Shown here: positions 19,101 to 39,549 of the stretch, piece after piece
How positions within the stretch are numbered: position 1 is the first letter of the stretch
Layout of the letters: every line of letters starts with the position of its first letter
Assembly: GCA_020161395.1 (NCBI GenBank)
Contig: JAIUOE010000012.1
Span: 1 to 64,000 of the forward strand
From: Bacteroidota bacterium
Lineage (GTDB): Bacteria; Bacteroidota; Ignavibacteria; Ignavibacteriales; Ignavibacteriaceae
DNA length: 64,000 nt
Direction of reading: 5' to 3'
Notes under the pieces: generated by a model
What the model was told of the DNA's origin: nothing
Seen by the model: the letters and a program-made list of their open reading frames with translations, nothing else
Database searches by the model: none
Made by a program: the position numbers and the translations under genes

Positions 19101-22100
19101 TCCCTCATAGGTTCGATTTAAGACGGGTCTTTGGCTGATTAACACGAAGGAAGTTAATTACATTTCAATCCCTCATAGGTTCGATTTAAGACGGATGTAT
19201 TTGCCGTTTTTCAGCTCCAGATTATAGGTGATTTCAATCCCTCATAGGTTCGATTTAAGACAGGAGTAATTGGTCTTATTGGTATGCTTGGGTTTACAAA
19301 TTTCAATCCCTCATAGGTTCGATTTAAGACTTTCGACAGCACAAAGGAGATGCAAGAGCTTAACGCATTTCAATCCCTCATAGGTTCGATTTAAGACCTG
19401 CGGAACACTACAAAAGGGAGTAACCCGTAAGGATATTTCAATCCCTCATAGGTTCGATTTAAGACATAATGCCTACGGAGAACATTTACGCCATCACTTC
19501 CGATTTCAATCCCTCATAGGTTCGATTTAAGACAAAAACCGATTCAATTTTATTTTGCCATCCGTCTTTAATTTCAATCCCTCATAGGTTCGATTTAAGA
19601 CACGGCAGGAACATTCACTAAATTCGTTCTCAATTTATTTCAATCCCTCATAGGTTCGATTTAAGACCAGATGCCATTGCTTGCCATCTCAAAGACAACC
19701 AAATCATTTCAATCCCTCATAGGTTCGATTTAAGACCAACCGGTCTCGGTTCTAAGATTGCGGTTATTGACAGATTTCAATCCCTCATAGGTTCGATTTA
19801 AGACTTTCAAAGTCTGCATTTTTAGAATGTAATATCTGTTCTATTTCAATCCCTCATAGGTTCGATTTAAGACTCTCCTGCCCGCAACTTTTGCAGGTGT
19901 CTTTTTTGCCATTTCAATCCCTCATAGGTTCGATTTAAGACTCGACAAAAGAGCCAAAAGACCCGAAGATAGAGACTATATTTCAATCCCTCATAGGTTC
20001 GATTTAAGACGGCGAAAAAGAAAGACAGAGAGTACATTCCGAAGCATTTCAATCCCTCATAGGTTCGATTTAAGACTTAAAGGCTCCTGGTGAGAAGTCA
20101 GATATAACAGACCATTTCAATCCCTCATAGGTTCGATTTAAGACATTTCGATAATACAGACTGATTAACTTGTATTGGGTATTTCAATCCCTCATAGGTT
20201 CGATTTAAGACCCCCGCTTGATCTTCTAAACAGAAATTCTAAACTCGTATTTCAATCCCTCATAGGTTCGATTTAAGACCAAACTGAATTTTATCCCTTT
20301 GGCTGTCGAGAAGGGCATTTCAATCCCTCATAGGTTCGATTTAAGACATTACTTGTCTGTCGTTTGCGGGGTTACCGGTAAGAAATTTCAATCCCTCATA
20401 GGTTCGATTTAAGACTATACAGGCAGGAACGCCCGGAACCATCCCTGTTGCATTTCAATCCCTCATAGGTTCGATTTAAGACTAGTCTAACCCAAACTGA
20501 TTTGTCCCTCCCAAAGAAACATTTCAATCCCTCATAGGTTCGATTTAAGACTCGTTCGTTTGTCGTAATTTGGTTTATCGTCACAGGATTTCAATCCCTC
20601 ATAGGTTCGATTTAAGACTTGTGATTCTCCTTTATTCGAAAATTCTTTTTAGGGATTTCAATCCCTCATAGGTTCGATTTAAGACGCTGGGTAATTGTCA
20701 GTCTGGAGACATCTTCACTCTATTTCAATCCCTCATAGGTTCGATTTAAGACTAAACAGCTTTCATTATTCGCCTTCCATTTCCAGAAATTTCAATCCCT
20801 CATAGGTTCGATTTAAGACACTTCGGGAGTTCCTTTAAGTACCGGTCGTATACCTATTTCAATCCCTCATAGGTTCGATTTAAGACGTGTTTTGCATCAA
20901 CTGTATTGCCTGCAAAATTAATAGATTTCAATCCCTCATAGGTTCGATTTAAGACCCCCTTCCTTCTTCCACTTTTGACATTCTGAATCTATTTCAATCC
21001 CTCATAGGTTCGATTTAAGACTCCTGCAACAGCTTTTCTTCAAGAAATGTTTCGATCGATTTCAATCCCTCATAGGTTCGATTTAAGACTCCCGATGTAA
21101 AAATAATTGGCAATACTATATATGCATTTCAATCCCTCATAGGTTCGATTTAAGACTTACGATACCAAGGCATTCGGGAATGAGCAGGCAAAATTTCAAT
21201 CCCTCATAGGTTCGATTTAAGACTATGCCGGAAATGTCATGGCAAAGAAAAAAGGAGGATTTCAATCCCTCATAGGTTCGATTTAAGACTTTGTGAAAGA
21301 CGGCGGTTGCTACGCTGAAATTCTTGGATTTCAATCCCTCATAGGTTCGATTTAAGACTGTTGTTTAATTTTTCTTTTCGTAAATCGGGTAACCGATTTC
21401 AATCCCTCATAGGTTCGATTTAAGACTCGATCGCTATTTGCTCATCGAGATCATTCAGCATCTATTTCAATCCCTCATAGGTTCGATTTAAGACTGGTGC
21501 GTCCGCGTATTACATGAACTTGGATGTGCATTTCAATCCCTCATAGGTTCGATTTAAGACTTGATCTGTGCATAGTTCTTTTTCAGAAGGTCAGTCTTAT
21601 TTCAATCCCTCATAGGTTCGATTTAAGACTTTATCCTGGGATATTATTTTATTTGGAGAAAAAAAATTTCAATCCCTCATAGGTTCGATTTAAGACTCAG
21701 AATGTTAATATATATGGCGAGGCAATTGATAAAATTTCAATCCCTCATAGGTTCGATTTAAGACTTATCCCACTATAAGCAACTACAACTGCCTGAGTAC
21801 CATTTCAATCCCTCATAGGTTCGATTTAAGACAAGAGCTAAAGAAAATGGTAAAAGACGGCTCTTTAGGCAATTTCAATCCCTCATAGGTTCGATTTAAG
21901 ACCAGGTACAGGCAGAGATAGATTATCGCAATGCCTTAAATTTCAATCCCTCATAGGTTCGATTTAAGACTTGAATGTACAATGAGTTATTGTTGCACCT
22001 TTTTCAAGTAATAAATTTCAATCCCTCATAGGTTCGATTTAAGACGCAGAGCCTGCCTGATTTCTACCGGTTGTTGCAACATTTCAATCCCTCATAGGTT

Positions 22101-25100
22101 CGATTTAAGACTAGCTGCAGAGAACATCAATGCAGCACATCTTGCATATTTCAATCCCTCATAGGTTCGATTTAAGACGACTTGCTGGTGGACAGGGATT
22201 TGGTATTAGTTTATTATTTCAATCCCTCATAGGTTCGATTTAAGACCGCTGCCTTTGCTTCATTTGTTTCGATCCTTACCAGAATTTCAATCCCTCATAG
22301 GTTCGATTTAAGACGCTCGCATCAAACTCGGTTTCATCAGGGAAAATAGTATTTCAATCCCTCATAGGTTCGATTTAAGACCGGGTTTCCCCATCAATCG
22401 TAAAACCTATAATTGTATTTCAATCCCTCATAGGTTCGATTTAAGACCAAAATCGCAAACGATGCGGTAAACGGCACTAAGATATTTCAATCCCTCATAG
22501 GTTCGATTTAAGACCGGTCAAAGTGGCGGGGCTTCTACTGCTTCTTTATTACTATTTCAATCCCTCATAGGTTCGATTTAAGACCACAAACCCTGTCACT
22601 TTTTCAGGTAACACAGCGACATTTCAATCCCTCATAGGTTCGATTTAAGACCCGGTCTTGGCAAGAATTTGGATGGGTCCTTGGAGGATTTCAATCCCTC
22701 ATAGGTTCGATTTAAGACCAAATGCGAAAGAAGGTATCAGATTAAAAGGTACTCCATTTCAATCCCTCATAGGTTCGATTTAAGACAATTCAGCCGGTGT
22801 TACATTATCTGTTACAAGAGAATTTCAATCCCTCATAGGTTCGATTTAAGACAAGACGAGTACGAGATGCTTTGGGAAACCGAATGGGAATTTCAATCCC
22901 TCATAGGTTCGATTTAAGACACTTCAAACTGCCAGAGGATTACAATCAGAATGTATATTTCAATCCCTCATAGGTTCGATTTAAGACAGATGGAAAGCAG
23001 ATGGCTATCACCTGTTCTTGAACCAATTTCAATCCCTCATAGGTTCGATTTAAGACATAATAAGCAATGTGACTGTAATGAGTTATAAAACAGAATTTCA
23101 ATCCCTCATAGGTTCGATTTAAGACTGGAAGATCCTTCGAAAGTCTGTGATCTCTTCTCAGCTATTTCAATCCCTCATAGGTTCGATTTAAGACCAGGTC
23201 GATGATGCCTTTCTGAAGTGGAAAGATGAATTTCAATCCCTCATAGGTTCGATTTAAGACCTCCTGTGGTTTCAGTTCCAACTCTAATAATATAGTTATT
23301 TCAATCCCTCATAGGTTCGATTTAAGACGATATACTAATAATATTTGCAACATTCTTTAGATAATTATTTCAATCCCTCATAGGTTCGATTTAAGACTGA
23401 AAATTATTGGTAATACGGTGTACGCAGATAACATATTTCAATCCCTCATAGGTTCGATTTAAGACCAGGCGGGTATATGGGATGTGGGAGCGTTTGTAAT
23501 AATTTCAATCCCTCATAGGTTCGATTTAAGACTCTGTATTGCAAAAGGTGGTAATTGGACAAACTCTGATTTCAATCCCTCATAGGTTCGATTTAAGACT
23601 TGCAAGGGATTCGGATAACCTGACCCGTGTTGAATGATTTCAATCCCTCATAGGTTCGATTTAAGACCGATCCAAATAGCAGCCAACAAAACAGGTAACA
23701 AAGTATTTCAATCCCTCATAGGTTCGATTTAAGACGCAATAAGTTCCATGACCGGCAAACAATGGAACTCGCATTTCAATCCCTCATAGGTTCGATTTAA
23801 GACGAAACCCGAACCGAAACAGCGGGCTTTTTTGACAGCATTTCAATCCCTCATAGGTTCGATTTAAGACTCGGCGGGGCTGATCTAACTTTCAGACAGG
23901 TAACACCATTTCAATCCCTCATAGGTTCGATTTAAGACTGACCTCGATTAATTATATTCTTTGCGGAACTCGATATTTCAATCCCTCATAGGTTCGATTT
24001 AAGACTGCCAGAATAAACATATATTTTTTTCCCTGTTGTGGATTTCAATCCCTCATAGGTTCGATTTAAGACTCCATAATGTCACATTGCCGTTTACCCA
24101 AATGCCGTTAATTTCAATCCCTCATAGGTTCGATTTAAGACCAATGGGTGCAAATTGCAACTCAATCTTATATCTTGGATTTCAATCCCTCATAGGTTCG
24201 ATTTAAGACGAGTTTACAAATAACCAGATCACCTATTTTTATATGCATTTCAATCCCTCATAGGTTCGATTTAAGACAGGACGACCTCCCGTTTTAGTTT
24301 TTTTTGCTTATTTTATTTCAATCCCTCATAGGTTCGATTTAAGACCTAAAGAAATACTTTGGAATTGGGAAGCATACGATTATATTTCAATCCCTCATAG
24401 GTTCGATTTAAGACAAATAGTAACAAAAGGTAACATTTTTGCCAAATAAAAAATTTCAATCCCTCATAGGTTCGATTTAAGACCGATAATACTGTTCACA
24501 GGTGTACAATAAAAAATGGATTTCAATCCCTCATAGGTTCGATTTAAGACATTTTAATGATTTTTGAAGGGTCTCATTGCTAACATCATTTCAATCCCTC
24601 ATAGGTTCGATTTAAGACGTAACCTACACATTTATTAACGACACTAAAGAAGTATTTCAATCCCTCATAGGTTCGATTTAAGACCCGTTCCACCGACATT
24701 AGTAGTCAACCAGTCAAAAAATTTCAATCCCTCATAGGTTCGATTTAAGACAAGGTGTCACAACAAACCCTTCAATAAGATATGGTTATTTCAATCCCTC
24801 ATAGGTTCGATTTAAGACTATTTAAGGGATATGCAGAGGATGGCTCACTTTTAAAATTTCAATCCCTCATAGGTTCGATTTAAGACCTCTTTATTGATTG
24901 GCCTTACAATTGATGGAGAAACAATTTCAATCCCTCATAGGTTCGATTTAAGACTCAACCCTCAACCGATCTTATACCTGGGGCCAACCATATTTCAATC
25001 CCTCATAGGTTCGATTTAAGACCACCCTGACATGGATTGACATATCCGAACATCTTGCATTTCAATCCCTCATAGGTTCGATTTAAGACTTATTGCCGGC

Positions 25101-28100
25101 ACTGACTTTATTTTTGTCAGGATGATATTTCAATCCCTCATAGGTTCGATTTAAGACTGTGCACATTAAAAAAAGGAACAAAATGCCAGTAATAGATTTC
25201 AATCCCTCATAGGTTCGATTTAAGACCAAGATGAGTGTGGAAATTAATTCAGATCCATCATTATTTCAATCCCTCATAGGTTCGATTTAAGACATATATT
25301 TTGGTTACGGAGTACCTCTGCAGTAACAATATTTCAATCCCTCATAGGTTCGATTTAAGACAATACAAATGGTAGATCAGAAAACCCACAATACAAATTT
25401 CAATCCCTCATAGGTTCGATTTAAGACATAGATTTTCTTGCCTGTTGTTGATATGGTATTAGCGATTTCAATCCCTCATAGGTTCGATTTAAGACCTGCG
25501 GATCGATTTCGACTCCTTTAGTCTGCATCTCCATTTCAATCCCTCATAGGTTCGATTTAAGACTGGCAGCGGGCACCCGAAATAAAAACAATACAGATTA
25601 TTTCAATCCCTCATAGGTTCGATTTAAGACAATCCTGGTCAGAAAAGCTCAGGAAGACGAATCGCAATTTCAATCCCTCATAGGTTCGATTTAAGACTTC
25701 GAGTTCCTCTTCCGTGAAGACGGGAAAGTAATCATTTCAATCCCTCATAGGTTCGATTTAAGACCTTGGTATCTTCAAGCATGGGATCGAGCTTCGCACT
25801 ATTTCAATCCCTCATAGGTTCGATTTAAGACTTTGTTTCTGCATCTATAATAAATCCCTTTACACAATTTCAATCCCTCATAGGTTCGATTTAAGACCTC
25901 CCCAATCAATCGAACCGATACGGGATTTTTTTAAATTTCAATCCCTCATAGGTTCGATTTAAGACCAAACCACTATCTCCATACCAAAAGACTCATTCAA
26001 CCATTTCAATCCCTCATAGGTTCGATTTAAGACTTTCTCCATCCAAAGGGTATCGACTATCCTGATCTATTTCAATCCCTCATAGGTTCGATTTAAGACC
26101 CTCATCTTAAAACGCCTCGTAAACGCGTAAAAGCCCATTTCAATCCCTCATAGGTTCGATTTAAGACTGGAACCCGGACAGAGCTGGAAAAACTCTTCTC
26201 CATTTCAATCCCTCATAGGTTCGATTTAAGACCACTTGCAGTTTTGGGATTGGTGGCGTTATGATAAGTCATTTCAATCCCTCATAGGTTCGATTTAAGA
26301 CGAGCTGAAATCGCACTTTCTGAAACGAAATACCTTTGTTATTTCAATCCCTCATAGGTTCGATTTAAGACTTGGTAAAAGAATCCGAAGCCGAGACTAA
26401 AGAAATGCTATTTCAATCCCTCATAGGTTCGATTTAAGACCCGTCTTGCATTTGTTTCCGTGGCATTAAAATACTATTTCAATCCCTCATAGGTTCGATT
26501 TAAGACGATTTTCAGTTTTACCCCTTCCTCAAGCTCAATCCAATTATTTCAATCCCTCATAGGTTCGATTTAAGACTTTATTGAAAGTTAAATAAAAAGG
26601 AAACCAAAAAAATTTCAATCCCTCATAGGTTCGATTTAAGACGAAGTTCGGAAAGGGAGAATACACTTCGCTTAAGCATTTCAATCCCTCATAGGTTCGA
26701 TTTAAGACAACACGAAATAAACAACCTAACAAAAGGAGCAACAAAAATTTCAATCCCTCATAGGTTCGATTTAAGACGTGATGTTGTTCAAAAGCTTAAG
26801 GGGATCGTGTCAGAATTTCAATCCCTCATAGGTTCGATTTAAGACTTTGCGGGGCAACTCGTGGGAGCGAAACGCAAGACCATTTCAATCCCTCATAGGT
26901 TCGATTTAAGACTTATTTTATTTGGAGAAAAAAATGAGACCTTTCAAAAATTTCAATCCCTCATAGGTTCGATTTAAGACATATGCCAAGATAGCCAAGA
27001 GATTAGAGAAATCAACATTTCAATCCCTCATAGGTTCGATTTAAGACTTGAAACAACCCGTATAACTTACCGTGCCTGCTAAAGATTTCAATCCCTCATA
27101 GGTTCGATTTAAGACCATTGAACCAAGAGGGGTAAAAAACCATCTCCCGTATTTCAATCCCTCATAGGTTCGATTTAAGACAAGAGATAAGGCAGGGTAT
27201 CCTGAAAAGCAACACCACATTTCAATCCCTCATAGGTTCGATTTAAGACCAAGGCAGCCATCAACCTAACCAATACCACACAAGACAATTTCAATCCCTC
27301 ATAGGTTCGATTTAAGACTCAATAGATGGAACATCATAATCCCATTTTTTACCCAATTTCAATCCCTCATAGGTTCGATTTAAGACAAAAGAACGCCTAC
27401 AATTGCACGATCAACAACTGGCATTTCAATCCCTCATAGGTTCGATTTAAGACTAGACTCCCTCATGCCCGGATGCAAGCTTTTCACATTTCAATCCCTC
27501 ATAGGTTCGATTTAAGACCAAAAAGATTAGAAGACCTAACATCTCTAACAAATACATTTCAATCCCTCATAGGTTCGATTTAAGACATATCACGAAGCAG
27601 TTAATAACACCGAACATTCTGAATTTCAATCCCTCATAGGTTCGATTTAAGACAAGCAGGATGAACCCCGGGGAAAAGATTTACATCGTATTTCAATCCC
27701 TCATAGGTTCGATTTAAGACAAAGCATAAACTATCAATAATATTCACTGTAGAACTATTTCAATCCCTCATAGGTTCGATTTAAGACGTTGCTATCTGAC
27801 CGTTGAAATTTGGACTTGTACCAATATTTCAATCCCTCATAGGTTCGATTTAAGACAACATTTGAGGGATTTTTCTGTAAGTCTTTACATTATTTCAATC
27901 CCTCATAGGTTCGATTTAAGACAATCCAACAGTTTGAAGCCGCCTACAAAACTACCACATTTCAATCCCTCATAGGTTCGATTTAAGACCACAAACCCTG
28001 TCACTTTTTCAGATAACACAGCGACATTTCAATCCCTCATAGGTTCGATTTAAGACTCCATCAGGATGTTAAGGTTTATCTCGAATCCATTTAATTTCAA

Positions 28101-31100
28101 TCCCTCATAGGTTCGATTTAAGACGCTGGAAACAGACTGCTGCAAAGAGTCGGCAAAGAAATTTCAATCCCTCATAGGTTCGATTTAAGACATATTTTGG
28201 TTACGGAGTACCTCTGCAGTAACAATATTTCAATCCCTCATAGGTTCGATTTAAGACTTTATATAGATATTATCTTACTACATTACTACAATGTATTTCA
28301 ATCCCTCATAGGTTCGATTTAAGACTTTTTCCTCGCGGACGGATGGCATGCACTTAAACTGCATTTCAATCCCTCATAGGTTCGATTTAAGACTCACCAA
28401 CAACATAATTACCCACACGACTGATTCCTTATTTCAATCCCTCATAGGTTCGATTTAAGACCGTCATACTGTTTTACAATTAGCTCCGGTATCTCCATTT
28501 CAATCCCTCATAGGTTCGATTTAAGACAAGAATTATTTTGCACGGGCTTACAACCTGCAAGAAGAATTTCAATCCCTCATAGGTTCGATTTAAGACTCCG
28601 GTCTTTCATCATATCAAGCTTTACCTCTAATCGATTTCAATCCCTCATAGGTTCGATTTAAGACTGTGCCCGATATTTTAACCCTTCACAGGCAGCTTTA
28701 TTTCAATCCCTCATAGGTTCGATTTAAGACTTGAGATTGACAGAGGGTCAGGTTATGAGGTAGAATTATTTCAATCCCTCATAGGTTCGATTTAAGACGG
28801 GCTTCACCTTTCATCGGCTTGTGCGTTCCGACCTATTTCAATCCCTCATAGGTTCGATTTAAGACGAGGAAAATACCGGAGCAGACCCTATAATTTCCTC
28901 AGTATTTCAATCCCTCATAGGTTCGATTTAAGACACGGAATACGGTATATCAGTTTTGCCCGTAAAGATATTTCAATCCCTCATAGGTTCGATTTAAGAC
29001 AAACAGACTTTTTTGATAAATGACAGGGATAATCTTATTTCAATCCCTCATAGGTTCGATTTAAGACGAAGGTATCGGTGGTGTTGGTTGTTACGCTGTT
29101 ACCATTTCAATCCCTCATAGGTTCGATTTAAGACATGGCTGTTTGGGTCGATCCATCGGTTCACAAAGACCATTTCAATCCCTCATAGGTTCGATTTAAG
29201 ACTGTTTTTTGGTTAAGAAGTGCCTCGACTGTCGTAATATTTCAATCCCTCATAGGTTCGATTTAAGACTAACCCTCGGGAAGTTTGTTACGCATAATCA
29301 TAACTATTTCAATCCCTCATAGGTTCGATTTAAGACTGGGTGAAAAAATGAAAAAGTACGAAGAATATGAGATATTTCAATCCCTCATAGGTTCGATTTA
29401 AGACGAGTTTTTTCATGACTGGGTTTTTCGAGGATCACAGTAATTTCAATCCCTCATAGGTTCGATTTAAGACAAGCTCTGTCAGGCTCTCTAAACAACA
29501 ATAAATATTATTTCAATCCCTCATAGGTTCGATTTAAGACCAAGGTACTTAAGACAGTTGTTCGAAGAAAGGAAAGATTTCAATCCCTCATAGGTTCGAT
29601 TTAAGACTTCCTGCTTTATTTCGATCGCCCGAATCCTTTGTTCGATTTCAATCCCTCATAGGTTCGATTTAAGACCAGTTCAGAAACCAAAAATCTCACA
29701 GCCTGTTTATATATTTCAATCCCTCATAGGTTCGATTTAAGACGTGTTCCTGTCCGTGTACCGCAGGCTACCAAACCAATTTCAATCCCTCATAGGTTCG
29801 ATTTAAGACGTTACGATCGCCGCGCCCCTTTTGGTTACACTCAATAATTTCAATCCCTCATAGGTTCGATTTAAGACACAAATTGTCCATATCAGCTTCA
29901 ATCGAATATTCACATTTCAATCCCTCATAGGTTCGATTTAAGACTTTTACAACTAAAGCTTTATTTGCTTCTGATATTTATTTCAATCCCTCATAGGTTC
30001 GATTTAAGACTAATCTTCTTCTTGTTGCAATACCCATTGCGTCTATATTTCAATCCCTCATAGGTTCGATTTAAGACCGCGTGTTGGATGACTATAAAGC
30101 CCGCTACATAGCATTTCAATCCCTCATAGGTTCGATTTAAGACACCAGTTCAACAGCGACCCACAGAGCGTTCAGACGGATTTCAATCCCTCATAGGTTC
30201 GATTTAAGACCAACCGCTTACTACGAGTGTGTGCACTGTAATGAAGATTTCAATCCCTCATAGGTTCGATTTAAGACGCGACCTGACATTCCTTCATACT
30301 GCGGACTGGCATGCATTTCAATCCCTCATAGGTTCGATTTAAGACGTAAAAATGATTTCAGAGGGTGTTGACATTCCACGATATTTCAATCCCTCATAGG
30401 TTCGATTTAAGACCACTCTGTGCCCAGCTCGTTATTATTGTGCTCATAATATTTCAATCCCTCATAGGTTCGATTTAAGACATACGAGGTATCTACGCTC
30501 CTTCTGTAGGGCACATGAATTTCAATCCCTCATAGGTTCGATTTAAGACAGAAACCCTTCAGTATTTAGAGGAAGCTATTCTGAATTTCAATCCCTCATA
30601 GGTTCGATTTAAGACCAGGTTTTTTACCCGTCTGCACAGTTCTTCATTTTGTCATTTCAATCCCTCATAGGTTCGATTTAAGACCATATCATAGCAATCA
30701 GGATCGACCTCGGTATAGCATTTCAATCCCTCATAGGTTCGATTTAAGACTGAACCGGTTTCGGCCTTTAATTTCTGGTAGGATGATTTCAATCCCTCAT
30801 AGGTTCGATTTAAGACTCACACGGTTTAAGAGCGGTGACGCCCCTAAAGCGGAATTTCAATCCCTCATAGGTTCGATTTAAGACCTATTTCAGACGATAC
30901 AAAAGATGATCAGATTGAGAATTTCAATCCCTCATAGGTTCGATTTAAGACCAACAAAGATGGATCTCGAGAATGAGATTAATCAATTATTTCAATCCCT
31001 CATAGGTTCGATTTAAGACAATTTCACCGTGAAAACCAAGAGTGCTGCCACAACATTTCAATCCCTCATAGGTTCGATTTAAGACTTTGTGTGTCTGACA

Positions 31101-31218
31101 TCTGATAGCCTTCGACAGTTTATTTCAATCCCTCATAGGTTCGATTTAAGACGAGCTTAAAGAAGTCACTCTCTCGGGTGATTATGGATTTCAATCCCTC
31201 ATAGGTTCGATTTAAGAC
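16185..31218 (-). CRISPR. Type I-B CRISPR array, 223 repeats by hand count
   Basis: A 31-bp repeat occurs every 66-69 bp. On the + strand it starts ATTTCAATCCCTCATAGG and ends TTCGATTTAAGAC. In transcription sense (- strand) it starts GTCTTAAATCG and ends in ATTGAAAT, the 8-nt handle typical of Cas6-processed crRNAs. I counted 223 repeats and 222 spacers, mostly 35-38 nt, with one of 44 nt at 21971-22014. All internal repeats I read are identical. The repeat at 16185-16215 is degenerate at its outer edge (two substitutions), marking it as the old, trailer end. The leader and newest spacers are at the 31218 side, next to cas2. Confidence 0.99.
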
Positions 31219-31315: not shown

Positions 31316-31582
31316 CTAAATGAATGTGTCGGTATCGTTTTTATCTTTACCGATTACATTCCGGGTTGTATAATTTCGTGAATCAAAAGTGTAATATATA
31401 ACAGAATCTTCAGAACTGTTAATTATGTTTTTCACTTTTGCCCTGATTTCCTCAAATCCTGAGTTAGTTATTTCACCCTCGAATACTGAATTTTGCACCC
31501 ACATCAGACGGGTCCTCAAATAGTTTAATATTTTTATTCCCCGTTTCGGGTTTGCAATGTCATAAACCATAATTATATACAT
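31316..31582 (-). CDS. cas2: CRISPR-associated endoribonuclease/adaptation protein Cas2
   Basis: Cas2 forms the adaptation complex with Cas1 and integrates new spacers. It is 88 residues long. The ferredoxin-like fold begins MYIIMVYDIANPKRGIKILN with the conserved Asp of VYD at residue 8, then LRTRLMWVQNSVFEGEITNS and VIYYTFDSRNYTTR. It starts 3 nt after the cas1 stop. It is the last gene of the cas operon and its stop codon abuts the leader. Confidence 0.97.
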   Translation of the reverse strand: MYIIMVYDIANPKRGIKILNYLRTRLMWVQNSVFEGEITNSGFEEIRAKVKNIINSSEDSVIYYTFDSRNYTTRNVIGKDKNDTDTFI

Positions 31583-31585
31583 AAA

Positions 31586-32680
31586 TCACCACCAGATTAC
31601 AAAAGGTTTATACTCTTTGTCACCAAGCAGGTGTTTAATCAGTTTATACGCTTCCAGCCTGATTAACTGCCTGTAACTAACGCTTCGCTTAAGCGTTCTG
31701 TGCTTGATAGTTGTTTTAAGTTTCTCGTCGAATTCTTTCAGAAAGATTTTTCGTCCTTCCTCTTTAAGGTGACAGAAATTCAGCTCTTTAGTAAAATGCT
31801 TTTGCTGAATTATTCCTTTGTTGATCACAGAAAATATTATTCTGTCAGTAAGCAATGGTTTAAATATCTCTGCCAAATCCAGACTCAGGGAGTATCTCGC
31901 AGTACCCGGCTCATGAAGGAAACTGATAGTTGGTGTAAGCTGAGTTTTGTGCAACTCTGAAAGAACCACATTATACACGAGCGAATTCCCGAACGAAATC
32001 AAAGCATTAATTGGATTCAGGGGTGGCTGCTTACTCCTTTTATCAAAATGAAAGCCAGGGTTAAGAATTTTGTTCCAGCACTGGTAATAAGTCTGCCGTA
32101 TGTTCCCCTCTATACCCATGATCTCAGCAACTGTTTTCGCCGCGGGAAGTGTGTCCCTTAATCCGTTAATGACCCCGATTTCCTCTTTTAGATCGCAGTC
32201 TCTGACATTATAATAGTTGAGATTCTTCAAAATATTCGCACTTGCTCCCAGTATCAGTTTCGACGCAAGCTCTACCCTCTTCTCTTTTTTGGAGTAGTGC
32301 ATAACCTGATTTACAGTAAGTTTTCCTGAAACAAGTGTCTCCTTCGGAACAAAGGACCCCGTATAATTGCCGTAATAATTGTAGAAGTGCAGAAGAATCC
32401 CCTTCGTGGCACAAAAATTAATGAAACGGGTGTTAAACTTTATCTCTCCAAACGAAAAAATGGCTTCAATATCCTCAACAGGGATCGGTTTCCGTGTAAT
32501 TCTTTGAGGCTCCAGTACCTCGCTCTCTTCAGAATAAGCCTCATTTTCATCCCCTGCCGAGAACTCCTCCTCTTCACCATTTACAGAGTCTCCGGGGTCT
32601 TCATAGCCAGGTTCAAAATAAAGTGTATTATTTCTCCGCATCAGTTTTCCGGATGAAAATATATAGTAGTTCCTTTTCAA
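31586..32680 (-). CDS. cas1: CRISPR-associated integrase Cas1 with acidic insertion
   Basis: Metal-dependent integrase of the Cas1-Cas2 complex. It is 364 residues, about 30 longer than I expect for type I-B. Metal ligands are visible as E191 (in EGNIRQTYY), H256 (LHEP) and D268/E271 (LDLAEIFKP). The N-terminal domain starts MKRNYYIFSSGKLMRRNNTL and resumes at KPIPVEDIEAIFSFGE. Between these, residues 27-58 form an extra, strongly acidic linker with 14 Asp/Glu in 32 residues (e.g. NGEEEEFSAGDENEAYSEES). It lies 12 nt after cas4 and 3 nt before cas2. Confidence 0.97.
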   Translation of the reverse strand: MKRNYYIFSSGKLMRRNNTLYFEPGYEDPGDSVNGEEEEFSAGDENEAYSEESEVLEPQRITRKPIPVEDIEAIFSFGEIKFNTRFINFCATKGILLHFYNYYGNYTGSFVPKETLVSGKLTVNQVMHYSKKEKRVELASKLILGASANILKNLNYYNVRDCDLKEEIGVINGLRDTLPAAKTVAEIMGIEGNIRQTYYQCWNKILNPGFHFDKRSKQPPLNPINALISFGNSLVYNVVLSELHKTQLTPTISFLHEPGTARYSLSLDLAEIFKPLLTDRIIFSVINKGIIQQKHFTKELNFCHLKEEGRKIFLKEFDEKLKTTIKHRTLKRSVSYRQLIRLEAYKLIKHLLGDKEYKPFVIWW

Positions 32681-32692
32681 ATCAATTCCTCA

Positions 32693-33181
32693 CTAATCAA
32701 CATAACAGAGTTCAAAATAGCTGCACCGCCTGCAGAACTTCTTGTGAATGACCTCGGGAGGACTCTCCAACCGTATGATCGACTCAATCTCAGGAATTAT
32801 CCTGTCAAATACTTCCCTCTCCTTGTCACTCAACTTTACCCGCAATCTTTTCTTGAGTCTGGGGTAATCAATAATACCCGTTACATCAGTAATACCCTTT
32901 GATTCGAGGACATAAATGTAATACTGCACCTGCCTCACATGCAACATTTCCATTTTATCTGTCTTCTTAATCTCATGAATGACCTTCCTTTGCCTGTCAA
33001 AATAATCAAGTGAGATGCCCTCGATCCTGATCTCATGATTCTCCCGTTTATAAGTGTTCTCAGATATAAACCTGCCAACCGCCACGGTGTCGGAATTGAA
33101 TTCCATGTTAATGTGGTTTGAGAATAACCACAGGTGCCTTTTACAGTGAAAATAATACTGGAGTTGAGTTCCTGTAATCAT
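32693..33181 (-). CDS. cas4: CRISPR-associated exonuclease Cas4
   Basis: RecB-like nuclease that trims prespacers and helps select the PAM during adaptation. Its 162 residues match small type I Cas4 proteins. The four iron-sulfur cysteines are present: C13 in YFHCKRHLW and C150, C153, C159 in FCRRCSYFELC. The nuclease motif HEIKKT (residues 69-74) is followed by RQVQYYIYVLE. It overlaps the cas3 stop by 4 nt, indicating coupled translation. Confidence 0.96.
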   Translation of the reverse strand: MITGTQLQYYFHCKRHLWLFSNHINMEFNSDTVAVGRFISENTYKRENHEIRIEGISLDYFDRQRKVIHEIKKTDKMEMLHVRQVQYYIYVLESKGITDVTGIIDYPRLKKRLRVKLSDKEREVFDRIIPEIESIIRLESPPEVIHKKFCRRCSYFELCYVD

Positions 33182-35880
33182 ATGAAGTTAATATCGTCCG
33201 TTCCGTCTATCACATCACTCTCAATCCCGTTTTCGAAAGTGTAAACATTAGAGTACTCCCTTAAATAGAACAGATCTCCGACGAACTCGCCATATTTCTC
33301 AACAGCTTTAAATTCCTTTCCGTATCGGGACACACTGAAAGAGAAATTCGACATTAGAGCTGCAATATTTTTTATTTTGGCGGACTTTCTAACAAAGTCA
33401 TCGTCTTTTCCGGCCAATACACCGTTCCAGATTGCAAAAAGTTCCTTGCCGGAGACACAGTCATTTGAATCCACAAGATCGAAATGCCTTGCCGTTTCTT
33501 TTTCTCTTTCTCCCAGCAGTTCAAGTTCAATGGATAGAGGGACAAACACCCTGACCGAATCATCCTCTATCAGTCTGAACTCACGGTCGATACTTTGGAA
33601 TTCCAGTCTTTTGAAAAGCTTCTTAAACTCTTCGAAACCTCCCGCAAAATTTAACCTGTTTCTTGCATCTATCTTTGAAAGCACCCGATCATAAAATTCC
33701 TCGAACCGTTTTTCTTTGAGAATATCAGCATAATCTTCACCGCTCAATTCCTTCTTTACTATCTCAAGCCTTTTATCACCCCTGTAAACATCATTGGCTT
33801 TTCCGCTGTTAAAGATAAATACCCTGCAATCCTTTTTGCCGGCGTTTCTGTTTACCCTTCCGGCAAACTGTTCTTCAGCATCAGGAATTGCCCTGTCCTT
33901 AAATCCGATATCCATGTCAATATCAACTCCCGCTTCAACAACCTGAGTTGCCACAACAATGACGGGACCCGTAATTTCCCCCTTAAGCCGCTGAATAAGG
34001 TCCTTTCTTCTCGGTTCAAGTATGTTTCCTGACAAAAGGAACTTGTTCCTGATAGATGAATAATCCTCACGGTTTAATATTTTGGAATAAAATTCGCCTG
34101 CGTTTTTCTTCGTCACAAACTCTATTAAAACCTTTAAATTCTTCTTTTGTGACAATAAAGGCTGAACGATCCCCGAGACTTTTGAAGCAAACTCATCGAG
34201 ATCAAATTCACCATCTTTCAACAGGGAAAAATCGTACTCCACCCGATGCATGAAATTTGGATTTGTAAAATATGCATCCCTGTTTTTTACCAATGATACA
34301 AAAGGATCATTCACCATGTTCAACAACTTGCTGATTTTGGGAAGTGTCGCCGACATGATGAAAAATCTGATGTTCAAAAGATCGGCATATTCATTTATCG
34401 CGAATATTAGTTTGTCCCAAATCTCAGGGTTATAACTCTGAATTTCGTCAATTATCACGATTGAGTTTGCAAGACGGTGAAATCCGTAAATCCTGTCCTT
34501 TCTGTGAGAGAGCATTAGACTAAAAAACCGGACATGACTCGTTAAAATCACAGGGTAGTTGTAGAAATATTCGGTAAGATAGTTCTGTTTTTCGCTTCCG
34601 TACTGACCATCTTTTATTTCGTCTTCCGGATTGTGTTTCAAAGTGCTTCCACTTTTGGAGTGCAACTCTGCCACTTCCTCATTGGTTAGACCGATAGCTT
34701 CTGTTAAAGTTTTATGTGTCTGGGTGATCAAGGTTGTAAAAGGAAAAACATAAAAAATCTTGTTGATCCTGTCGTCATTCTGAATCAGTTCAGATGCTGC
34801 GAGAAAAGAGAGATTTGTCTTGCCGCTCCCTGTCGGAGCTTCGAGGTAAAAAAGCCGTTTATCTTTATTCTCAGCTATATTGCCCAGCACCTCCGAAGCG
34901 AGAGAAGACCTCAAGCGGTTCAGATTCTCATTTGACATTTCAGACAGTGTTGCCGGATCCAATTTCAATTTCTCTCGTTCTTCATCTTTCAATCTCTTGT
35001 TGTATTCGATACTGTAAAGATTTCTGCAGAACTTCTCCTTGAGCCTGTCAGAAAAGATGCCAAAATCATTCCAATCCATACCGCTCATAAATTGATTCGT
35101 GGCATAGTAGTCAGCAGCTGTTAGAAGAGAAAAGCTCATTTTGATCAATGAATAAGCCGCTGTATTGCCAAGTTTTAAGAATTCTTCCATCAATACTATG
35201 TTCTTCCAGGAATTCGAGTCGAATATCTTTGTCAGAATTTCGTGAACAGAGGAGATATCAGGGATAAAAACTTCAGATAGAGCCTTCAACTCTTCGAGCA
35301 CTTCGGGATTAAACGGAGATGATTCAGAACAGAATGCCTCATACAACTGCCCGTGGTGCATCCTTAATGGATATGATAATGCAATAATCATGTAAAAAAC
35401 GGGAAATCCCTTCGGCGGCATTCCTTCCAATTTCAGGATACCTCTCTCCAGAGCCAGTTTCATGAAGTGTGCGGTAAAGAAATATGCGCCTGCTTCAGAA
35501 TGATGGGAGCCGAGTAGAGTATCCTGTTTCCTGAAGCCCGGATTCTTCATTTTTTCATACTGAAAACCGGGGTTGATCTTCCCAAAATCATGGAACAACA
35601 CAACCCCGGCAAATGCCTCTTTTATCAGTTCAGCAGTTTCCTGAATACCTTCCGATCCGTTCTTTTCAAGGAAATTGAAAACAAGATCGTCTATTACACG
35701 ATCAAGTCCGTTTGCCTCAACAAGTTTAACAAAGTAGTGAATGACCAGGCTTGTATGCTCATGAAGTGTTTCCCGCTCATTCCCGTCTTTGGAGAGATGG
35801 GCAATATATTTTTCATGTTCCCGAATAAACCCGGGTACCGAAAAATTAGTGTTCGCTGTTATTTCCCTGATAGAACGCAT
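33178..35880 (-). CDS. cas3: CRISPR-associated helicase-nuclease Cas3
   Basis: Degrades target DNA recruited by Cascade. A fused 900-residue protein. The N-terminal HD nuclease has H42 in HEHTSLVIHYF, the HD pair 97-98 in LFHDFGKINPGFQ, and HH126-127 in GSHHSEAGAYFF. A superfamily 2 helicase follows, with Walker A EAPTGSGKTNLSF near 345-355, motif II IVIIDEIQSYNP (DEIQ), motif III MSATLPK, and motifs V/VI VATQVVEAGVDIDMDIGF and EQFAGRVNRNAGK. The C-terminal ~200 residues are the accessory domain. All catalytic motifs appear intact. It starts 9 nt after cas5 and overlaps cas4 by 4 nt. Confidence 0.97.
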   Translation of the reverse strand: MRSIREITANTNFSVPGFIREHEKYIAHLSKDGNERETLHEHTSLVIHYFVKLVEANGLDRVIDDLVFNFLEKNGSEGIQETAELIKEAFAGVVLFHDFGKINPGFQYEKMKNPGFRKQDTLLGSHHSEAGAYFFTAHFMKLALERGILKLEGMPPKGFPVFYMIIALSYPLRMHHGQLYEAFCSESSPFNPEVLEELKALSEVFIPDISSVHEILTKIFDSNSWKNIVLMEEFLKLGNTAAYSLIKMSFSLLTAADYYATNQFMSGMDWNDFGIFSDRLKEKFCRNLYSIEYNKRLKDEEREKLKLDPATLSEMSNENLNRLRSSLASEVLGNIAENKDKRLFYLEAPTGSGKTNLSFLAASELIQNDDRINKIFYVFPFTTLITQTHKTLTEAIGLTNEEVAELHSKSGSTLKHNPEDEIKDGQYGSEKQNYLTEYFYNYPVILTSHVRFFSLMLSHRKDRIYGFHRLANSIVIIDEIQSYNPEIWDKLIFAINEYADLLNIRFFIMSATLPKISKLLNMVNDPFVSLVKNRDAYFTNPNFMHRVEYDFSLLKDGEFDLDEFASKVSGIVQPLLSQKKNLKVLIEFVTKKNAGEFYSKILNREDYSSIRNKFLLSGNILEPRRKDLIQRLKGEITGPVIVVATQVVEAGVDIDMDIGFKDRAIPDAEEQFAGRVNRNAGKKDCRVFIFNSGKANDVYRGDKRLEIVKKELSGEDYADILKEKRFEEFYDRVLSKIDARNRLNFAGGFEEFKKLFKRLEFQSIDREFRLIEDDSVRVFVPLSIELELLGEREKETARHFDLVDSNDCVSGKELFAIWNGVLAGKDDDFVRKSAKIKNIAALMSNFSFSVSRYGKEFKAVEKYGEFVGDLFYLREYSNVYTFENGIESDVIDGTDDINFI

Positions 35881-35889: not shown

Positions 35890-36684
35890 TCAGTTTAGTT
35901 GAACAATTATCTTTTTTTCGCCTTCCTTCAGCAAATAGAGATTTCCGGGATTGTATCTGCCGTCAAACTTCACATTAGTAAGAACGAAGTCACTGAAAGC
36001 ATACACTCTCCTCTGCTCATCATAACCGGAAGGAAGCCTCTCGAAGTTGAAGACCGGGTTCGATTGAATAAAGGTGAAGAAACCAGGTGATTTTACACCT
36101 TCGACTCTCACGCCTTCCTGCTTGATGAATGCCGTCTCTATTTGGTATTGCTCACCATCAGCAGGATGAAATTCCGAGAATTCGTACTCACGAAAATTTT
36201 CCCACCAGATCTGGAATTCATTTTTCCCGAGATAAGGAATGTAAACAGCATCACTTTTTTTCAAATTCTCATAAATCACTTTTTGTTCTTCAATGTCAAG
36301 ATCCAGTTTCAAATAGACATCAAAAGCAGGATTGATAAGAATCTGCTCCTGTACTATAAGGTTGCCGCCTTCCTCATGACTGGCGAAGCCAGTGCTGTTG
36401 TTGTATTTCAAATAACTCTTCTTGAACACGGCTGAATCGCCACCTGTAACGGGCTTAATGCCTGCACAAATGGAATTTAACTTCTGATAATATTCAGGAA
36501 GCTTTTTTGTGTCTTCAATGTAACTCTGATAGAAACCTCCCAAACCTGCAATTGCGCCCAGAATACCAAGAAGTGCAGGCTTGTGAAGTGAATTGTATGT
36601 CAAATACAAATCCTCGTTCATATCAGTCTTCTTTAGAAAACCCAGTGGAGACCTGATTCTGACCGAAATAACCGTCTCTTTCAT
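35890..36684 (-). CDS. cas5b: CRISPR-associated protein Cas5 (type I-B)
   Basis: Cascade subunit that caps the 5' handle of the crRNA. 264 residues. It has the Cas5 N-terminal RRM strand with the typical SPLGFLKKTD-like start and the conserved helix HKPALLGILGAIAGLGGFYQ. The C-terminus has the PVFNFERLPSGY segment and a short beta end. Identification rests on this fold pattern and on position between cas7 and cas3. It begins 8 nt after the cas7 stop. Confidence 0.92.
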   Translation of the reverse strand: MKETVISVRIRSPLGFLKKTDMNEDLYLTYNSLHKPALLGILGAIAGLGGFYQSYIEDTKKLPEYYQKLNSICAGIKPVTGGDSAVFKKSYLKYNNSTGFASHEEGGNLIVQEQILINPAFDVYLKLDLDIEEQKVIYENLKKSDAVYIPYLGKNEFQIWWENFREYEFSEFHPADGEQYQIETAFIKQEGVRVEGVKSPGFFTFIQSNPVFNFERLPSGYDEQRRVYAFSDFVLTNVKFDGRYNPGNLYLLKEGEKKIIVQLN

Positions 36685-36692: not shown

Positions 36693-37739
36693 CTAAATTT
36701 TTTGCGAGTTGAGAAGATTATATTTTTCTATATTCATCCCGTCAAAACCGGTCACAATTGTGTCAGTTGGATTGTAATAGAGTTCGACCTTTTCAATTTC
36801 TTCAATCACACTCTTTATTACCTCGGCAGCTCTAGTGGCATCTATTACCACTTTTTTGTCCTTGTCTCTTCTCACATCAATCAGTTCTGTGAAACCGGGA
36901 AGTACCTTGTTTGATCCCTCTTTCAGGGTAACAAACAGAGCCATTTCGTTCTCTGACCCGATTTTCCTTGAGGAATCCAAGTAGGTTACAGCTTTTGTCA
37001 TGGCTTCTTTTAAGACATCGATATCCTTATTGGAAAGATGCCTGGCTAACCTTTTTTCGCCGTCCGGTGTCTCGAGATTTTCCAAAAGTCTGTAATAATC
37101 TTCAAGATTCTTTGGATTTATAGAGAAATGATAGACATAATGACCCTCCTGCAGGTTCGTCTGATTGCCAATTGTTGCATTCTGCTTATCATCTTCTTCA
37201 GTTCCCGTGCGGAATGGTGACAATATGTCCTCAGTATAAATTACATTCTCATTGAACTTGTTTACAGCGTGATTTATCTGTACCGGTCCATGAATTGAAA
37301 GATTTACACTGTCTGTTTTTGACTGTTTTGCAAATGTTGCACCGAACAGTCTTACATCAATGCAGTTAAACAGGTTAAAAAGAGAGGTGAACTTCGATTT
37401 GCCCTTCTCTTTTTTTGCTGATTTCGCACCTTCTTCGCTCCCGGAAGATTTAATCATGCCATCAACTGATGCAACCATTTTTTCATAGGCTTCTTCGAGA
37501 TTGAATGGAACCATGTCGTTATTGTATCTTTTTATGTAAAGAACATGGTTTCCGGGAGTGCCTTCATAATTTTTCTTTATATAGTCTTTGATAGCATATT
37601 TCAATGCTTTGTCCGTTGCATACACAGTACCGTCAGGAAGAGTACGGGGTGAATGAGTGAAGTCTGCATTAAAGTTTGAATTGATTGAACGGATTACTGC
37701 ACATCCGTAAACGCGATTGTTGAATTTTTCTGTAGCCAT
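36693..37739 (-). CDS. cas7: CRISPR-associated protein Cas7 (Csh2 type)
   Basis: Backbone subunit that polymerises along the crRNA in Cascade. The opening NNRVYGCAVIRSINSNFNAD then FTHSPRTLPDGTVYATDKAL matches the Csh2 form of Cas7 (original coding of type I-B). The C-terminal region has a charged DVRRDKDKKVVIDATRAAEV segment. I place the start at ATG 37739, one base after the cas8b stop, with AGGAG 10 nt upstream. Earlier in-frame codons would run into cas8b. Length is 348 residues. Confidence 0.95.
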   Translation of the reverse strand: MATEKFNNRVYGCAVIRSINSNFNADFTHSPRTLPDGTVYATDKALKYAIKDYIKKNYEGTPGNHVLYIKRYNNDMVPFNLEEAYEKMVASVDGMIKSSGSEEGAKSAKKEKGKSKFTSLFNLFNCIDVRLFGATFAKQSKTDSVNLSIHGPVQINHAVNKFNENVIYTEDILSPFRTGTEEDDKQNATIGNQTNLQEGHYVYHFSINPKNLEDYYRLLENLETPDGEKRLARHLSNKDIDVLKEAMTKAVTYLDSSRKIGSENEMALFVTLKEGSNKVLPGFTELIDVRRDKDKKVVIDATRAAEVIKSVIEEIEKVELYYNPTDTIVTGFDGMNIEKYNLLNSQKI

Positions 37740-37740
37740 C

Positions 37741-38139
37741 TTAATTGGTCTCCTGTATAGTTTCTTTCGATTTATATAAAATGTTATCTCCGAAATATCC
37801 CGCAAACAGTACAGGCAACATTTCCTTGTACCCTGTTTCAGGCCTGTATCCTATTACTTCTTCAAACAACCTGTTAAACCTGAGGCTGTTGAAAGAGATT
37901 GCGTGTTTGTACTGATTAAACACTCTTATCAACTGGTCGTTAAAAGATTCAACAGTTGTCCTGTTGATGAAAGGTTCAATCAGTGAATGTGTCTTATTGC
38001 CTGACTGACTCTGCGAAAGCAAGTAATAGATTAACTGCCCGGCACAGAATGCGTATTCGTAGTCATCCCGAATGTGACTCTCTGATGACTTGACGATTTC
38101 TCCAATCCTCTCGAAATATTTGGGTATCTCGCTTGGCAT
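37741..38139 (-). CDS. cas11b: Predicted Cas11b small subunit, internal start within cas8b
   Basis: An in-frame ATG (codon 471 of cas8b) at 38139 is preceded by a perfect GGAGGA Shine-Dalgarno (38151-38146 on the - strand) with 6 nt between. Initiation here gives a 132-residue, mostly helical protein starting MPSEIPKYFERIGEIV, with the same stop as cas8b. It is established for types I-B, I-C and I-D that the Cas11 small subunit is translated from inside cas8/cas10d. There is no separate small-subunit gene in this operon. The internal start is my inference from sequence, but the ribosome-binding site is among the strongest in the operon. Confidence 0.8.
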   Translation of the reverse strand: MPSEIPKYFERIGEIVKSSESHIRDDYEYAFCAGQLIYYLLSQSQSGNKTHSLIEPFINRTTVESFNDQLIRVFNQYKHAISFNSLRFNRLFEEVIGYRPETGYKEMLPVLFAGYFGDNILYKSKETIQETN

Positions 38140-39549
38140 ATCTCTTCCTCCGAAATTAGTGTTATTTTTATCGAATTTGTGATTTAAGCTAAATAGTATG
38201 TTTAATATGTTTCGGATGCTGTCGAAAGGCAGCTTTTCCGATGACAGTATAAGGTCAGTAACATTTGAAATTATCAGGTTGTAGAAACTTTTACCGGTGA
38301 TGGCATCCGTCTTCGACTTGTAAATGTATTCGTAAATGGAGTAACGGTATTTTTCGATATTGTTGATAACGGACTTGCACGGTTGTTTGTTGAAAAACCT
38401 GTTCGCGCCAAGATCATCAAAATAGTGAAAACTCGGGTTTTCCTTCCCTGTGATAAGCATGTTGTTAAAAATCGCATTTGCAACCCTGAACTCAAAGTCG
38501 AATATATTCTTTACATCATCACTTTCTCTTTGATTTTGCATCAACTTGATTATCCTGAAATCTTCCAATTGATAAACAAACTGTTCAACAAAATCGAAAT
38601 CATTTATTGATATACTCATCCCCTTGCTCCAGTTTAGAAGATAATAGTCACCAAGTTGATCCGCTCCTTTTTCCTTAAAAATTCGCTCTATCATACCCCG
38701 GTAAGAAAATTTACCGTCCTGTTTTAGGGTCTCAATTATATCACCGTTCAGTTGTTCTTCGTATATGAAGACCGGCAGAGGATTGGGAATTCTGTTTTCT
38801 TTAAGTCGCAATAAAACTTCAAAAACATTCAGGTTTATAGCGGTTCTGAAATCTGTCAGTCTGAATGAATGTGCAAAAGAGCTTTGAGAAAATTTATAGG
38901 GTTTCTTCTGGTTAGTGTCAATTTTGAAGGAATGAATCCCATAGTTTCCGTTTTCAATAGTGTAATCATTCACATTGTATATCTTCTTTTTAAAATAATC
39001 ATCTGATATATCTTGTATGATTTCAAGTGGCATATCGAAAAGAATTGTGATTTTTTTCTCATCGCCAGGATGAAAAAGCCCGACACGACCAATTAAATCT
39101 CTAAAAATAGATTGTGCAATCGCATATTCACCGTTTATTTCGGTTCTTGTGAATATATTCTCGTAAAGGTCTCCGGCAGTTGCATAAAAAGCATCTACCG
39201 AGCTCTGAAGCTTTTCGAGATTTTTGGTATTTAATTGTATAACAAAGGGATTGTTTGTATAAATCTGCTTTACGAGCGTCTTGTTACTGCTTACTGCTCT
39301 CGACAGGAAGAGTTTCTTATTAAACTGAGATTTCGTAATAAACTCGTGAATTGCAACTTCCTCAACATCAGCGGTTAGTTTTCCCTTTTTATCAACTTCA
39401 AAGTGATAATGAAGTTTGAAATTCACCGGGTTCTCTGAGTCCTTAACATAAATGAAATACTCTCCTTCTTCGAGAGGTTTACTCTCAAACAGCAGCCAGT
39501 TTAATTTATCTCCCAGAGAATTGACATAATTTGAAAGTTCGGTTATCAT
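37741..39549 (-). CDS. cas8b: Cascade large subunit Cas8b (Csh1 type)
   Basis: Large subunit of type I-B Cascade that reads the PAM and starts target unwinding. 602 residues. Sequence conservation is low, as is usual for Cas8; the call rests on operon position between cas6 and cas7, length, and the helical C-terminus (FCAGQLIYYLLSQSQSGNKT, RLFEEVIGYRP, MLPVLFAGYFGDN). It overlaps cas6 by 4 nt at its start. Its C-terminal 132 codons carry an internal ribosome-binding site and start codon, described separately as Cas11b. Confidence 0.92.
   Translation of the reverse strand: MITELSNYVNSLGDKLNWLLFESKPLEEGEYFIYVKDSENPVNFKLHYHFEVDKKGKLTADVEEVAIHEFITKSQFNKKLFLSRAVSSNKTLVKQIYTNNPFVIQLNTKNLEKLQSSVDAFYATAGDLYENIFTRTEINGEYAIAQSIFRDLIGRVGLFHPGDEKKITILFDMPLEIIQDISDDYFKKKIYNVNDYTIENGNYGIHSFKIDTNQKKPYKFSQSSFAHSFRLTDFRTAINLNVFEVLLRLKENRIPNPLPVFIYEEQLNGDIIETLKQDGKFSYRGMIERIFKEKGADQLGDYYLLNWSKGMSISINDFDFVEQFVYQLEDFRIIKLMQNQRESDDVKNIFDFEFRVANAIFNNMLITGKENPSFHYFDDLGANRFFNKQPCKSVINNIEKYRYSIYEYIYKSKTDAITGKSFYNLIISNVTDLILSSEKLPFDSIRNILNILFSLNHKFDKNNTNFGGRDMPSEIPKYFERIGEIVKSSESHIRDDYEYAFCAGQLIYYLLSQSQSGNKTHSLIEPFINRTTVESFNDQLIRVFNQYKHAISFNSLRFNRLFEEVIGYRPETGYKEMLPVLFAGYFGDNILYKSKETIQETN

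What the first reader, a model, noticed from the sequence alone, without database searches (positions are those of the whole stretch)
37741..38151. Internal ribosome-binding site in cas8b predicts a separately translated Cas11b
Seen: GGAGGA, 6 nt, then an in-frame ATG at codon 471 of cas8b, giving a 132-residue helical C-terminal product. No small-subunit gene exists in the operon. Known: in types I-B, I-C and I-D the small subunit Cas11 comes from internal initiation in the large-subunit gene. This adds a candidate from a deep Bacteroidota-group lineage with an unusually clear signal.
Basis: partly seen in the sequence, partly recalled or inferred. Interest (0 to 1): 0.8.

Follow-up and report, generated by a model that had tools for sequence, protein, structure and literature searches.

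The report
Hidden Cas11 start inside cas8b
One CRISPR gene in this bacterium very probably makes two proteins, the long Cas8b and a short Cas11b started from within it, a known trick of such systems whose inner start codon is kept in distant relatives even where the ribosome signal in front of it has changed.

Summary
One such signal proves little (169 of 3000 codon-order shuffles give an equal one), but relatives settle it. Of 80 aligned Cas8b rows with a residue at this column, window included, 77 have Met, in a variable linker; the next best internal Met column has 56 of 80. All 14 genomes of the window's class found with the site (window included) keep GGAGG or AGGAG in front, although residues differ. 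In 44 of 45 Bacteroidia loci the SD is gone while the ATG stays, and an adenine peak at -14 to -11 resembles that at the cas7 and cas8b starts of the same loci. The 132-residue model is a six-helix bundle like type I-C Cascade small subunits. Internal initiation of Cas11 in type I-B is known, so this is a new member; the change of initiation signal within the family is the less expected part. No protein was observed; expression is inferred.

The parts
37741..39549 (-). cas8b, large subunit of type I-B Cascade, 602 aa
   Evidence: PADLOC PDLC01507 Cas8b E 1.6e-66 over residues 1-597; no NCBIfam match at E 0.001 and no Pfam match at E 1; the model aligns over residues 1-598 with 8g9t_K of a type I-C Cascade, Z 7.5
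38146..38151 (-). GGAGGA, internal Shine-Dalgarno of cas11b
   Evidence: Sequence; GGAGG or AGGAG in 14 of 14 genomes of the class found with the site, window included
37741..38139 (-). cas11b, in-frame internal ORF from ATG codon 471, 132 aa
   Evidence: Met in 77 of 80 aligned rows; six-helix model, pLDDT 88.9; aligns with 7kha_K, Z 6.5, 110 of 120 residues
39546..40346 (-). cas6
   Evidence: TIGR01877 E 4.9e-29
36693..37739 (-). cas7, starting 1 nt after the cas8b stop, own AGGAG
   Evidence: Pfam Cas_Cas7 E 3.6e-38; start context
35890..36684 (-). cas5b
   Evidence: TIGR02592 E 4.1e-24, below the curated cut-off; PDLC00951 Cas5b E 1.1e-24
33178..35880 (-). cas3
   Evidence: TIGR01587 E 1.2e-36; PDLC01758 Cas3b E 3.7e-236
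31316..33181 (-). cas4, cas1 (type I-B), cas2
   Evidence: TIGR00372 E 9.5e-20, TIGR03641 E 1.1e-134, TIGR01573 E 3.2e-13
16185..31218 (+). CRISPR array, 223 repeats of 31 nt
   Evidence: Pattern count with up to 4 substitutions

Best explanation
cas8b encodes two proteins in one frame. Ribosomes starting at codon 1 make Cas8b; others load independently at GGAGGA and start at codon 471, making Cas11b, which is the C-terminal helical domain of Cas8b as a free subunit. By analogy with known type I-B Cascade, several Cas11b copies would line up with the Cas8b C-terminus along the belly of Cascade and support the non-target DNA strand. Shown here: the sequence, the conservation of the start and of its signal by lineage, the fold resemblance, and that no second gene like it was found. 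Inferred: that the short protein is made, its copy number, and its role.
For: Position 471 is Met in 77 of 80 rows while residues 464-470 vary and the linker carries indels. L080 has TTG with AGGAG in front: the residue changed, a start codon stayed. Class: an SD motif at 13 of 13 testable sites against 5.5% of other codon positions, median SD rank in the top 0.7% of the gene; a 14th at a contig end also has GGAGGA. The SD glycine is GGA in all 11 Gly rows of column 467 and in the 3 KG rows, against 131 of 309 Gly codons overall; none of 9 other columns with 9 or more Gly is uniform. Internal SD goes with SD at cas7: of 78 loci, both 22, neither 47, cas7 only 8, internal only 1. Bacteroidia: adenine at -12 in 38 of 45 and at -13 in 36 of 45 (controls 36% and 31%), like the cas7 and cas8b starts of the same loci; wobble -13 is A in 36 against 23.2 expected. 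Residue 2 is A, P, V, S, G or T in 71 of 77, as suits removal of an initiator Met (recalled). In the full-length model a helix starts at 471. Cascade entries fill rows 2-8 of the fold list.
Against: No protein, ribosome-profiling or proteomic data. The single-gene signal is near chance (5.6%). Per-gene synonymous shuffles are not significant. The tree gives only 4 starred independent pairs, too few for significance. L066, titled Ignavibacteria, has no SD at either start, and L021 has one inside but not at cas7. In the class the region is not unusually unstructured (median percentile 0.46). In Bacteroidia the inner start differs from cas7 starts at -3 and -6 (A 53% and 47% against 87% and 71%). 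Z of about 6.5 is middling for helical bundles, Foldseek has no hit at E 0.001, and the top row, 3e0z (Z 10.7), is not titled as Cas. Two of the 80 rows lack a start codon there: L087 ends at a contig end, L086 aligns poorly. In T. maritima the internal cas8b1 start gave no Cas11 in E. coli (PMC13199841, passages).
Confidence: 0.9

Rival explanations
1. The Met and the glycine-rich linker are kept for the structure of Cas8b alone; the SD-like letters are a by-product of GGA-rich glycine codons and no Cas11b is made.
For: Per-gene synonymous shuffles do not separate the SD from glycine codon choice; GGA is the commonest Gly codon here (131 of 309).
Against: Neighbouring residues vary while Met does not; TTG with AGGAG in L080; the SD persists through GG, GD and KG residues; Bacteroidia lose the glycines but show an adenine peak like that of gene starts.
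Confidence: 0.06
2. A short C-terminal fragment exists but comes from proteolysis of Cas8b or from a separate internal transcript.
For: Short Cas8b pieces in two other species were first read as fragmentation (PMC11899642, passage).
Against: Neither needs a conserved ATG and a lineage-matched initiation signal; no exact TANNTTTG box was found on this strand in 38139-38700 (no other promoter type was sought).
Confidence: 0.04

Closest known systems
Cas11b by internal in-frame translation of cas8b in Haloferax volcanii (PMC11899642; abstract and passages seen)
   Same: Type I-B, no cas11 gene, internal Met of cas8b with a possible SD, short C-terminal subunit needed for effective interference
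   Different: Archaeal; there shown by experiment, here computational; there one organism, here a family alignment across SD-using and SD-poor hosts
Synechocystis PCC 6714 type I-B Cascade, 8H67 (PMC11096372; passages seen)
   Same: Cas11b identical to the C-terminal portion of Cas8b; three copies per complex
   Different: Its Cas8b was formerly named Cmx8; our profiles gave no credible match to any PDB chain sequence, and 8H67 is not among the fold rows shown
Type I-C Cascade large and small subunits (7kha, 8g9t, 8dex; read as Cas8c and Cas11c from entry titles and chain sizes)
   Same: Fold of the 132-residue product and full-length arrangement; model residues 6-128 align with residues 1-124 of 7kha chain K
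   Different: Sequence identity 4-9% in these alignments; another subtype
SD-independent initiation in Bacteroidia (PMC6847099, PMC9976891; abstracts and passages seen)
   Same: Adenines at -12 and -13, low structure, no SD at the internal start of the Bacteroidia relatives
   Different: There described for gene starts; here inside a reading frame; A at -3 and -6 not above matched controls

Membership tests
Cas11b made by internal initiation in type I-B cas8b | Type I-B effector operon with cas8b | tested here: met
   cas6-cas8b-cas7-cas5-cas3-cas4-cas1-cas2 by NCBIfam, Pfam and PADLOC; Cas1 passes the cut-off of the type I-B model TIGR03641
Cas11b made by internal initiation in type I-B cas8b | In-frame internal start with an initiation signal, conserved | tested here: met
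   Met in 77 of 80 rows; SD in 14 of 14 genomes of the class found with the site
Cas11b made by internal initiation in type I-B cas8b | Short product has the Cas11 helical-bundle fold | tested here: met
   Six helices, pLDDT 88.9; 7kha_K Z 6.5, rmsd 4.2, 110 residues; C-terminal parts of type I-C large subunits Z 6.0-6.5. Z is moderate for a helical bundle
Cas11b made by internal initiation in type I-B cas8b | No separate cas11 gene | tested here: met
   No room in the operon; the profile of the domain hits the own genome once, inside cas8b (10 of 22 first-look candidates were scored there). A small subunit without sequence likeness is not excluded
Cas11b made by internal initiation in type I-B cas8b | Short protein is made and sits in Cascade in several copies | not testable with these tools
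   Needs proteomics or complex purification
SD-independent (Bacteroidia-type) start, for the Bacteroidia relatives | No SD; adenines at -12 and -13; little structure | tested here: met
   SD motif in 1 of 45; A-12 in 38 and A-13 in 36 of 45 against control 36% and 31%; MFE median percentile 0.066; -12 and -13 hold against polar-linker controls
SD-independent (Bacteroidia-type) start, for the Bacteroidia relatives | Adenines at -3 and -6 | tested here: inconclusive
   24 and 21 of 45, above all positions but not above polar-linker controls (21 against 21.2 and 19 against 21.3 of 41), and below cas7 starts

The most novel reading that the evidence does not exclude
In one Cas8b family the inner Cas11 start codon has outlived a change in how ribosomes find it: SD-led in Ignavibacteria and some other lineages, adenine-led without SD in Bacteroidia, with the signal mostly tracking that of the neighbouring cas7 start and changing 5 times on the tree by parsimony. 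Internal initiation of Cas11 would then work without any SD across a class whose ribosomes are reported to hide the anti-SD.
Probability: 0.7. Interest if true: 0.6.

Novelty: new member of a known kind. Interest (0 to 1): 0.5.

Why it matters
It extends Cas11 by internal initiation to what is inferred to be Ignavibacteria, with comparative evidence, and gives a named start (codon 471) for anyone rebuilding this Cascade: the small subunit may have to be supplied separately, as in T. maritima. The Bacteroidia part offers a clean test of SD-free initiation inside a gene: the same start codon, in the same gene, under two different ribosome rules. It also tells annotators to mark a second product in these cas8b genes.

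Tried and rejected
Single-sequence significance: codon-order shuffles and the genome pattern count show that one GGAGGA-ATG inside one gene is weak evidence. Per-gene synonymous shuffles of SD energy: not significant, p 0.09-0.52 in 13 genes. Tree-based pairing of internal SD with cas7 SD: internal SD changes 5 times, cas7 SD 10 times; 4 starred independent pairs, cas7 the same way in 3.4 on average, never opposite, median sign-test p 0.25; taken from cas7, 8 pairs, internal the same way in 3.5, no difference in 4.5, never opposite. So the Fisher p of 8e-12 is not corrected for kinship, nor is that for 14 of 14 against 1 of 45 (1.1e-12). The tree is a quick one and warns of long branches near the window's row. 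Sequence profiles against PDB chains: one hit each at E 1.2 and 1.4, not credible. 8H67 is not among the fold rows shown; that is no evidence against. An exact TANNTTTG box ahead of codon 471: none. The source paper for internal Cas11 (McBride 2020) is not held; I know it from papers that cite it.

Rows dropped: 83 loci were confirmed by the scan and the best 80 returned. L047 ends before the column. The Bacteroidia set is 45 loci whose titles name a taxon of that class, chosen by me; left out were L085 and L087 (truncated) and those titled only Bacteroidetes or Bacteroidota bacterium (L023, L033, L048, L079). In the remaining group 20 of 22 loci were used and 9 of 20 have an SD motif. L103 was left out of the ranking (contig start). 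In one search, 12 loci that repeat others were removed before the 78-locus count, and L084 was set by hand to GGAGG because its upstream stretch is shorter than the test window; L025, L085 and L087 had no cas7. The start of cas8b is simply the first Met of the open frame (44 of 45 loci). Labels of metagenome bins can be wrong: L022 (called Cyclobacteriaceae, with SD), L036 (called Anaeromyxobacter) and L066 (called Ignavibacteria, without SD) may be misplaced contigs.

Full report
What is there. On the minus strand the window holds a type I-B operon in the order cas6, cas8b, cas7, cas5, cas3, cas4, cas1, cas2, next to an array of 223 repeats. Cas8b (602 aa) has no NCBIfam or Pfam match but matches PADLOC's Cas8b model PDLC01507 over residues 1-597 (E 1.6e-66). 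At codon 471 the gene reads GGAGGA-AGAGAT-ATG in frame, leaving 132 codons. The largest gap between neighbouring operon genes is 12 nt, so no cas11 gene fits.

Where it comes from. I infer that the class is Ignavibacteria. A published survey has 32 for Ignavibacteria in a table column that I read as per cent of SD use, and 1-2% for most Bacteroidia examples (PMC10783764, passages). The 16S tail of this genome carries CCTCC.

How strong is the signal by itself? Codon 471 has the best anti-SD pairing of 17 in-frame start-like codons (-9.5 kcal/mol, next -5.6), near cas8b's own start (-11.8). But 169 of 3000 codon-order shuffles also give such an ATG, and the genome holds 228 GGAGGA-N4-9-ATG against 113 for the reversed control. 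One gene alone would not carry the claim.

Conservation of the start codon. A scan of the species-genome collection confirmed 83 relatives and returned 80 loci. With the window, 81 rows were aligned; 80 have a residue at this column, and 77 are Met, hence ATG. The exceptions: L080 has TTG with AGGAG in front; L086 aligns poorly; L087 is at a contig end. Upstream residues 461-470 mostly vary and carry gaps (Asn at 463 is 49 of 69). The next best internal Met columns have 56 and 47 of 80. Residue 2 is A, P, V, S, G or T in 71 of 77.

Conservation of the signal in the class. A search of 391 genomes drawn from the class found the gene in 14, the window's included, and all 14 have GGAGG or AGGAG upstream of the ATG. 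At 13 testable sites the motif is present in 13, against 5.5% of other codon positions, median SD rank in the top 0.7%. The encoded residues differ: GG, GD after an insertion, KG. Column 467 is GGA in all 11 Gly rows, while GGA is 131 of 309 Gly codons overall, and none of 9 other columns with 9 or more Gly is uniform. Per-gene synonymous shuffles of energy are not significant, so the case rests on the group, not on each gene. Of nine loci titled Ignavibacteria, Ignavibacteriae, Ignavibacteriaceae or Melioribacter(aceae), eight have the SD and L066 does not; L066 groups with Bacteroidia rows in the tree.

Bacteroidia. In 45 loci titled with a Bacteroidia taxon, an SD motif is present in 1 (control rate 5.9%), yet the ATG is there in all 45. 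Adenine stands at -12 in 38 and at -13 in 36 of 45 (controls 36% and 31%), and the region is unusually unstructured (median percentile 0.066); in the window's class it is not (0.46). Positions -12 and -13, with -3 and -6, are reported as positive determinants in Flavobacterium johnsoniae (PMC6847099, passages). The wobble base -13 is A in 36 against 23.2 expected from each gene's codon use; the Lys codon at -5 is AAA in 23 of 23 against 2134 of 2929 overall. Against polar-linker controls -12 and -13 still stand out (35 and 36 of 41 against 19.9 and 15.9), while -3 and -6 do not. An adenine peak at -14 to -11 is also seen at the cas7 and cas8b starts of these loci; at -3 and -6, however, cas7 starts are richer in A (87% and 71%) than the inner start (53% and 47%), which has G in a third of loci there.

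Signal and neighbour. In 78 loci, SD at the internal start and SD at the cas7 start occur together in 22, neither in 47, cas7 alone in 8, internal alone in 1. On a 77-row tree the internal SD changes 5 times; in the 4 starred independent pairs cas7 goes the same way 3.4 times on average and never the other way, too few for significance. L036 and L039 sit in a clade of Bacteroidia-titled rows (support 100) but carry SDs at both starts; their bins may be misnamed.

Structure. AlphaFold2 with 66 sequences gives six helices at mean pLDDT 88.9. Foldseek gives no hit at E 0.001 or below. In the VIA second look, rows 2-8 are all Cascade entries: 7kha_K of the D. vulgaris type I-C Cascade (Z 6.5, 110 residues, model 6-128 on chain 1-124), C-terminal parts of type I-C large subunits (Z 6.0-6.5), and a type I-B CAST chain (8fcj_I, Z 3.8); row 1 is 3e0z (Z 10.7), a small protein not titled as Cas. 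That 7kha_K is Cas11c and the long chains are Cas8c I take from chain sizes and recall; the entry titles do not say so. The full-length model (pLDDT 84.2) has a helix starting at 471 (at residue 5 of the short model) and aligns with 8g9t_K over residues 1-598 (Z 7.5; Foldseek E 1.9e-4).

No second copy seen. A profile of the 132-residue domain over 391 genomes of the class finds it in 15: 14 are the cas8b genes, one of them cut by a contig end, and one is a weak hit (G050, E 4.4e-4); the own genome has one hit, inside cas8b.

Reading. The best explanation is independent initiation at codon 471, giving a free Cas11b. Known parts: internal initiation of Cas11 in types I-B, I-C and I-D (review PMC10212523, passages; PMC11899642; PMC11096372). 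I found no account of the conservation in Bacteroidota-group hosts or of the change of signal in the searches (the last listed 10 of 27 papers), nor in the passages seen of the 2025 classification PMC12669027. The library holds open-licence papers only, and McBride 2020, the likeliest place, is not held.

Limits. No expression data; metagenome labels may be wrong; related rows are not independent; group statistics are uncorrected for kinship except, which lacks power.

Noticed in passing
window 16185-31218: Very long CRISPR array: 223 repeats of 31 nt, 222 of them identical, spacers mostly 35-38 nt by this repeat length.
   Followed up: partly
3e0z (PDB), against window 37741-38139: The closest fold to the Cas11b model is a 107-residue Eubacterium rectale protein titled a putative imidazole glycerol phosphate synthase homolog (Z 10.7); it may itself be a Cas11-like subunit.
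   Followed up: no
L045, L050, L052, L059, L070, L075, L077, L082: Eight loci inside one 13-row Cas8b clade have an SD motif before cas7 (AGGAG in five) but none at the internal start; unexplained.
   Followed up: no
L008/L102 (same genus as the window): cas8b is split into open pieces of 232 and 395 aa in different frames; the SD and ATG of the inner start are intact. Assembly error or pseudogene.
   Followed up: no
L036, L039: Inside a clade of Bacteroidia-titled Cas8b rows (support 100), SDs are present at both the internal and the cas7 starts; one is labelled Anaeromyxobacter. A possible gain of SD after transfer to an SD-using host.
   Followed up: partly
L080, L086 (Campylobacterota labels): L080 has TTG with AGGAG at the internal start; L086 has a TTG with AAAGGA in front at position 504 of its open frame, uncertain.
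   Followed up: partly
L066: Titled Ignavibacteria but lacks SD at both the internal and cas7 starts and groups with Bacteroidia rows in the tree: transfer or a misplaced contig.
   Followed up: no
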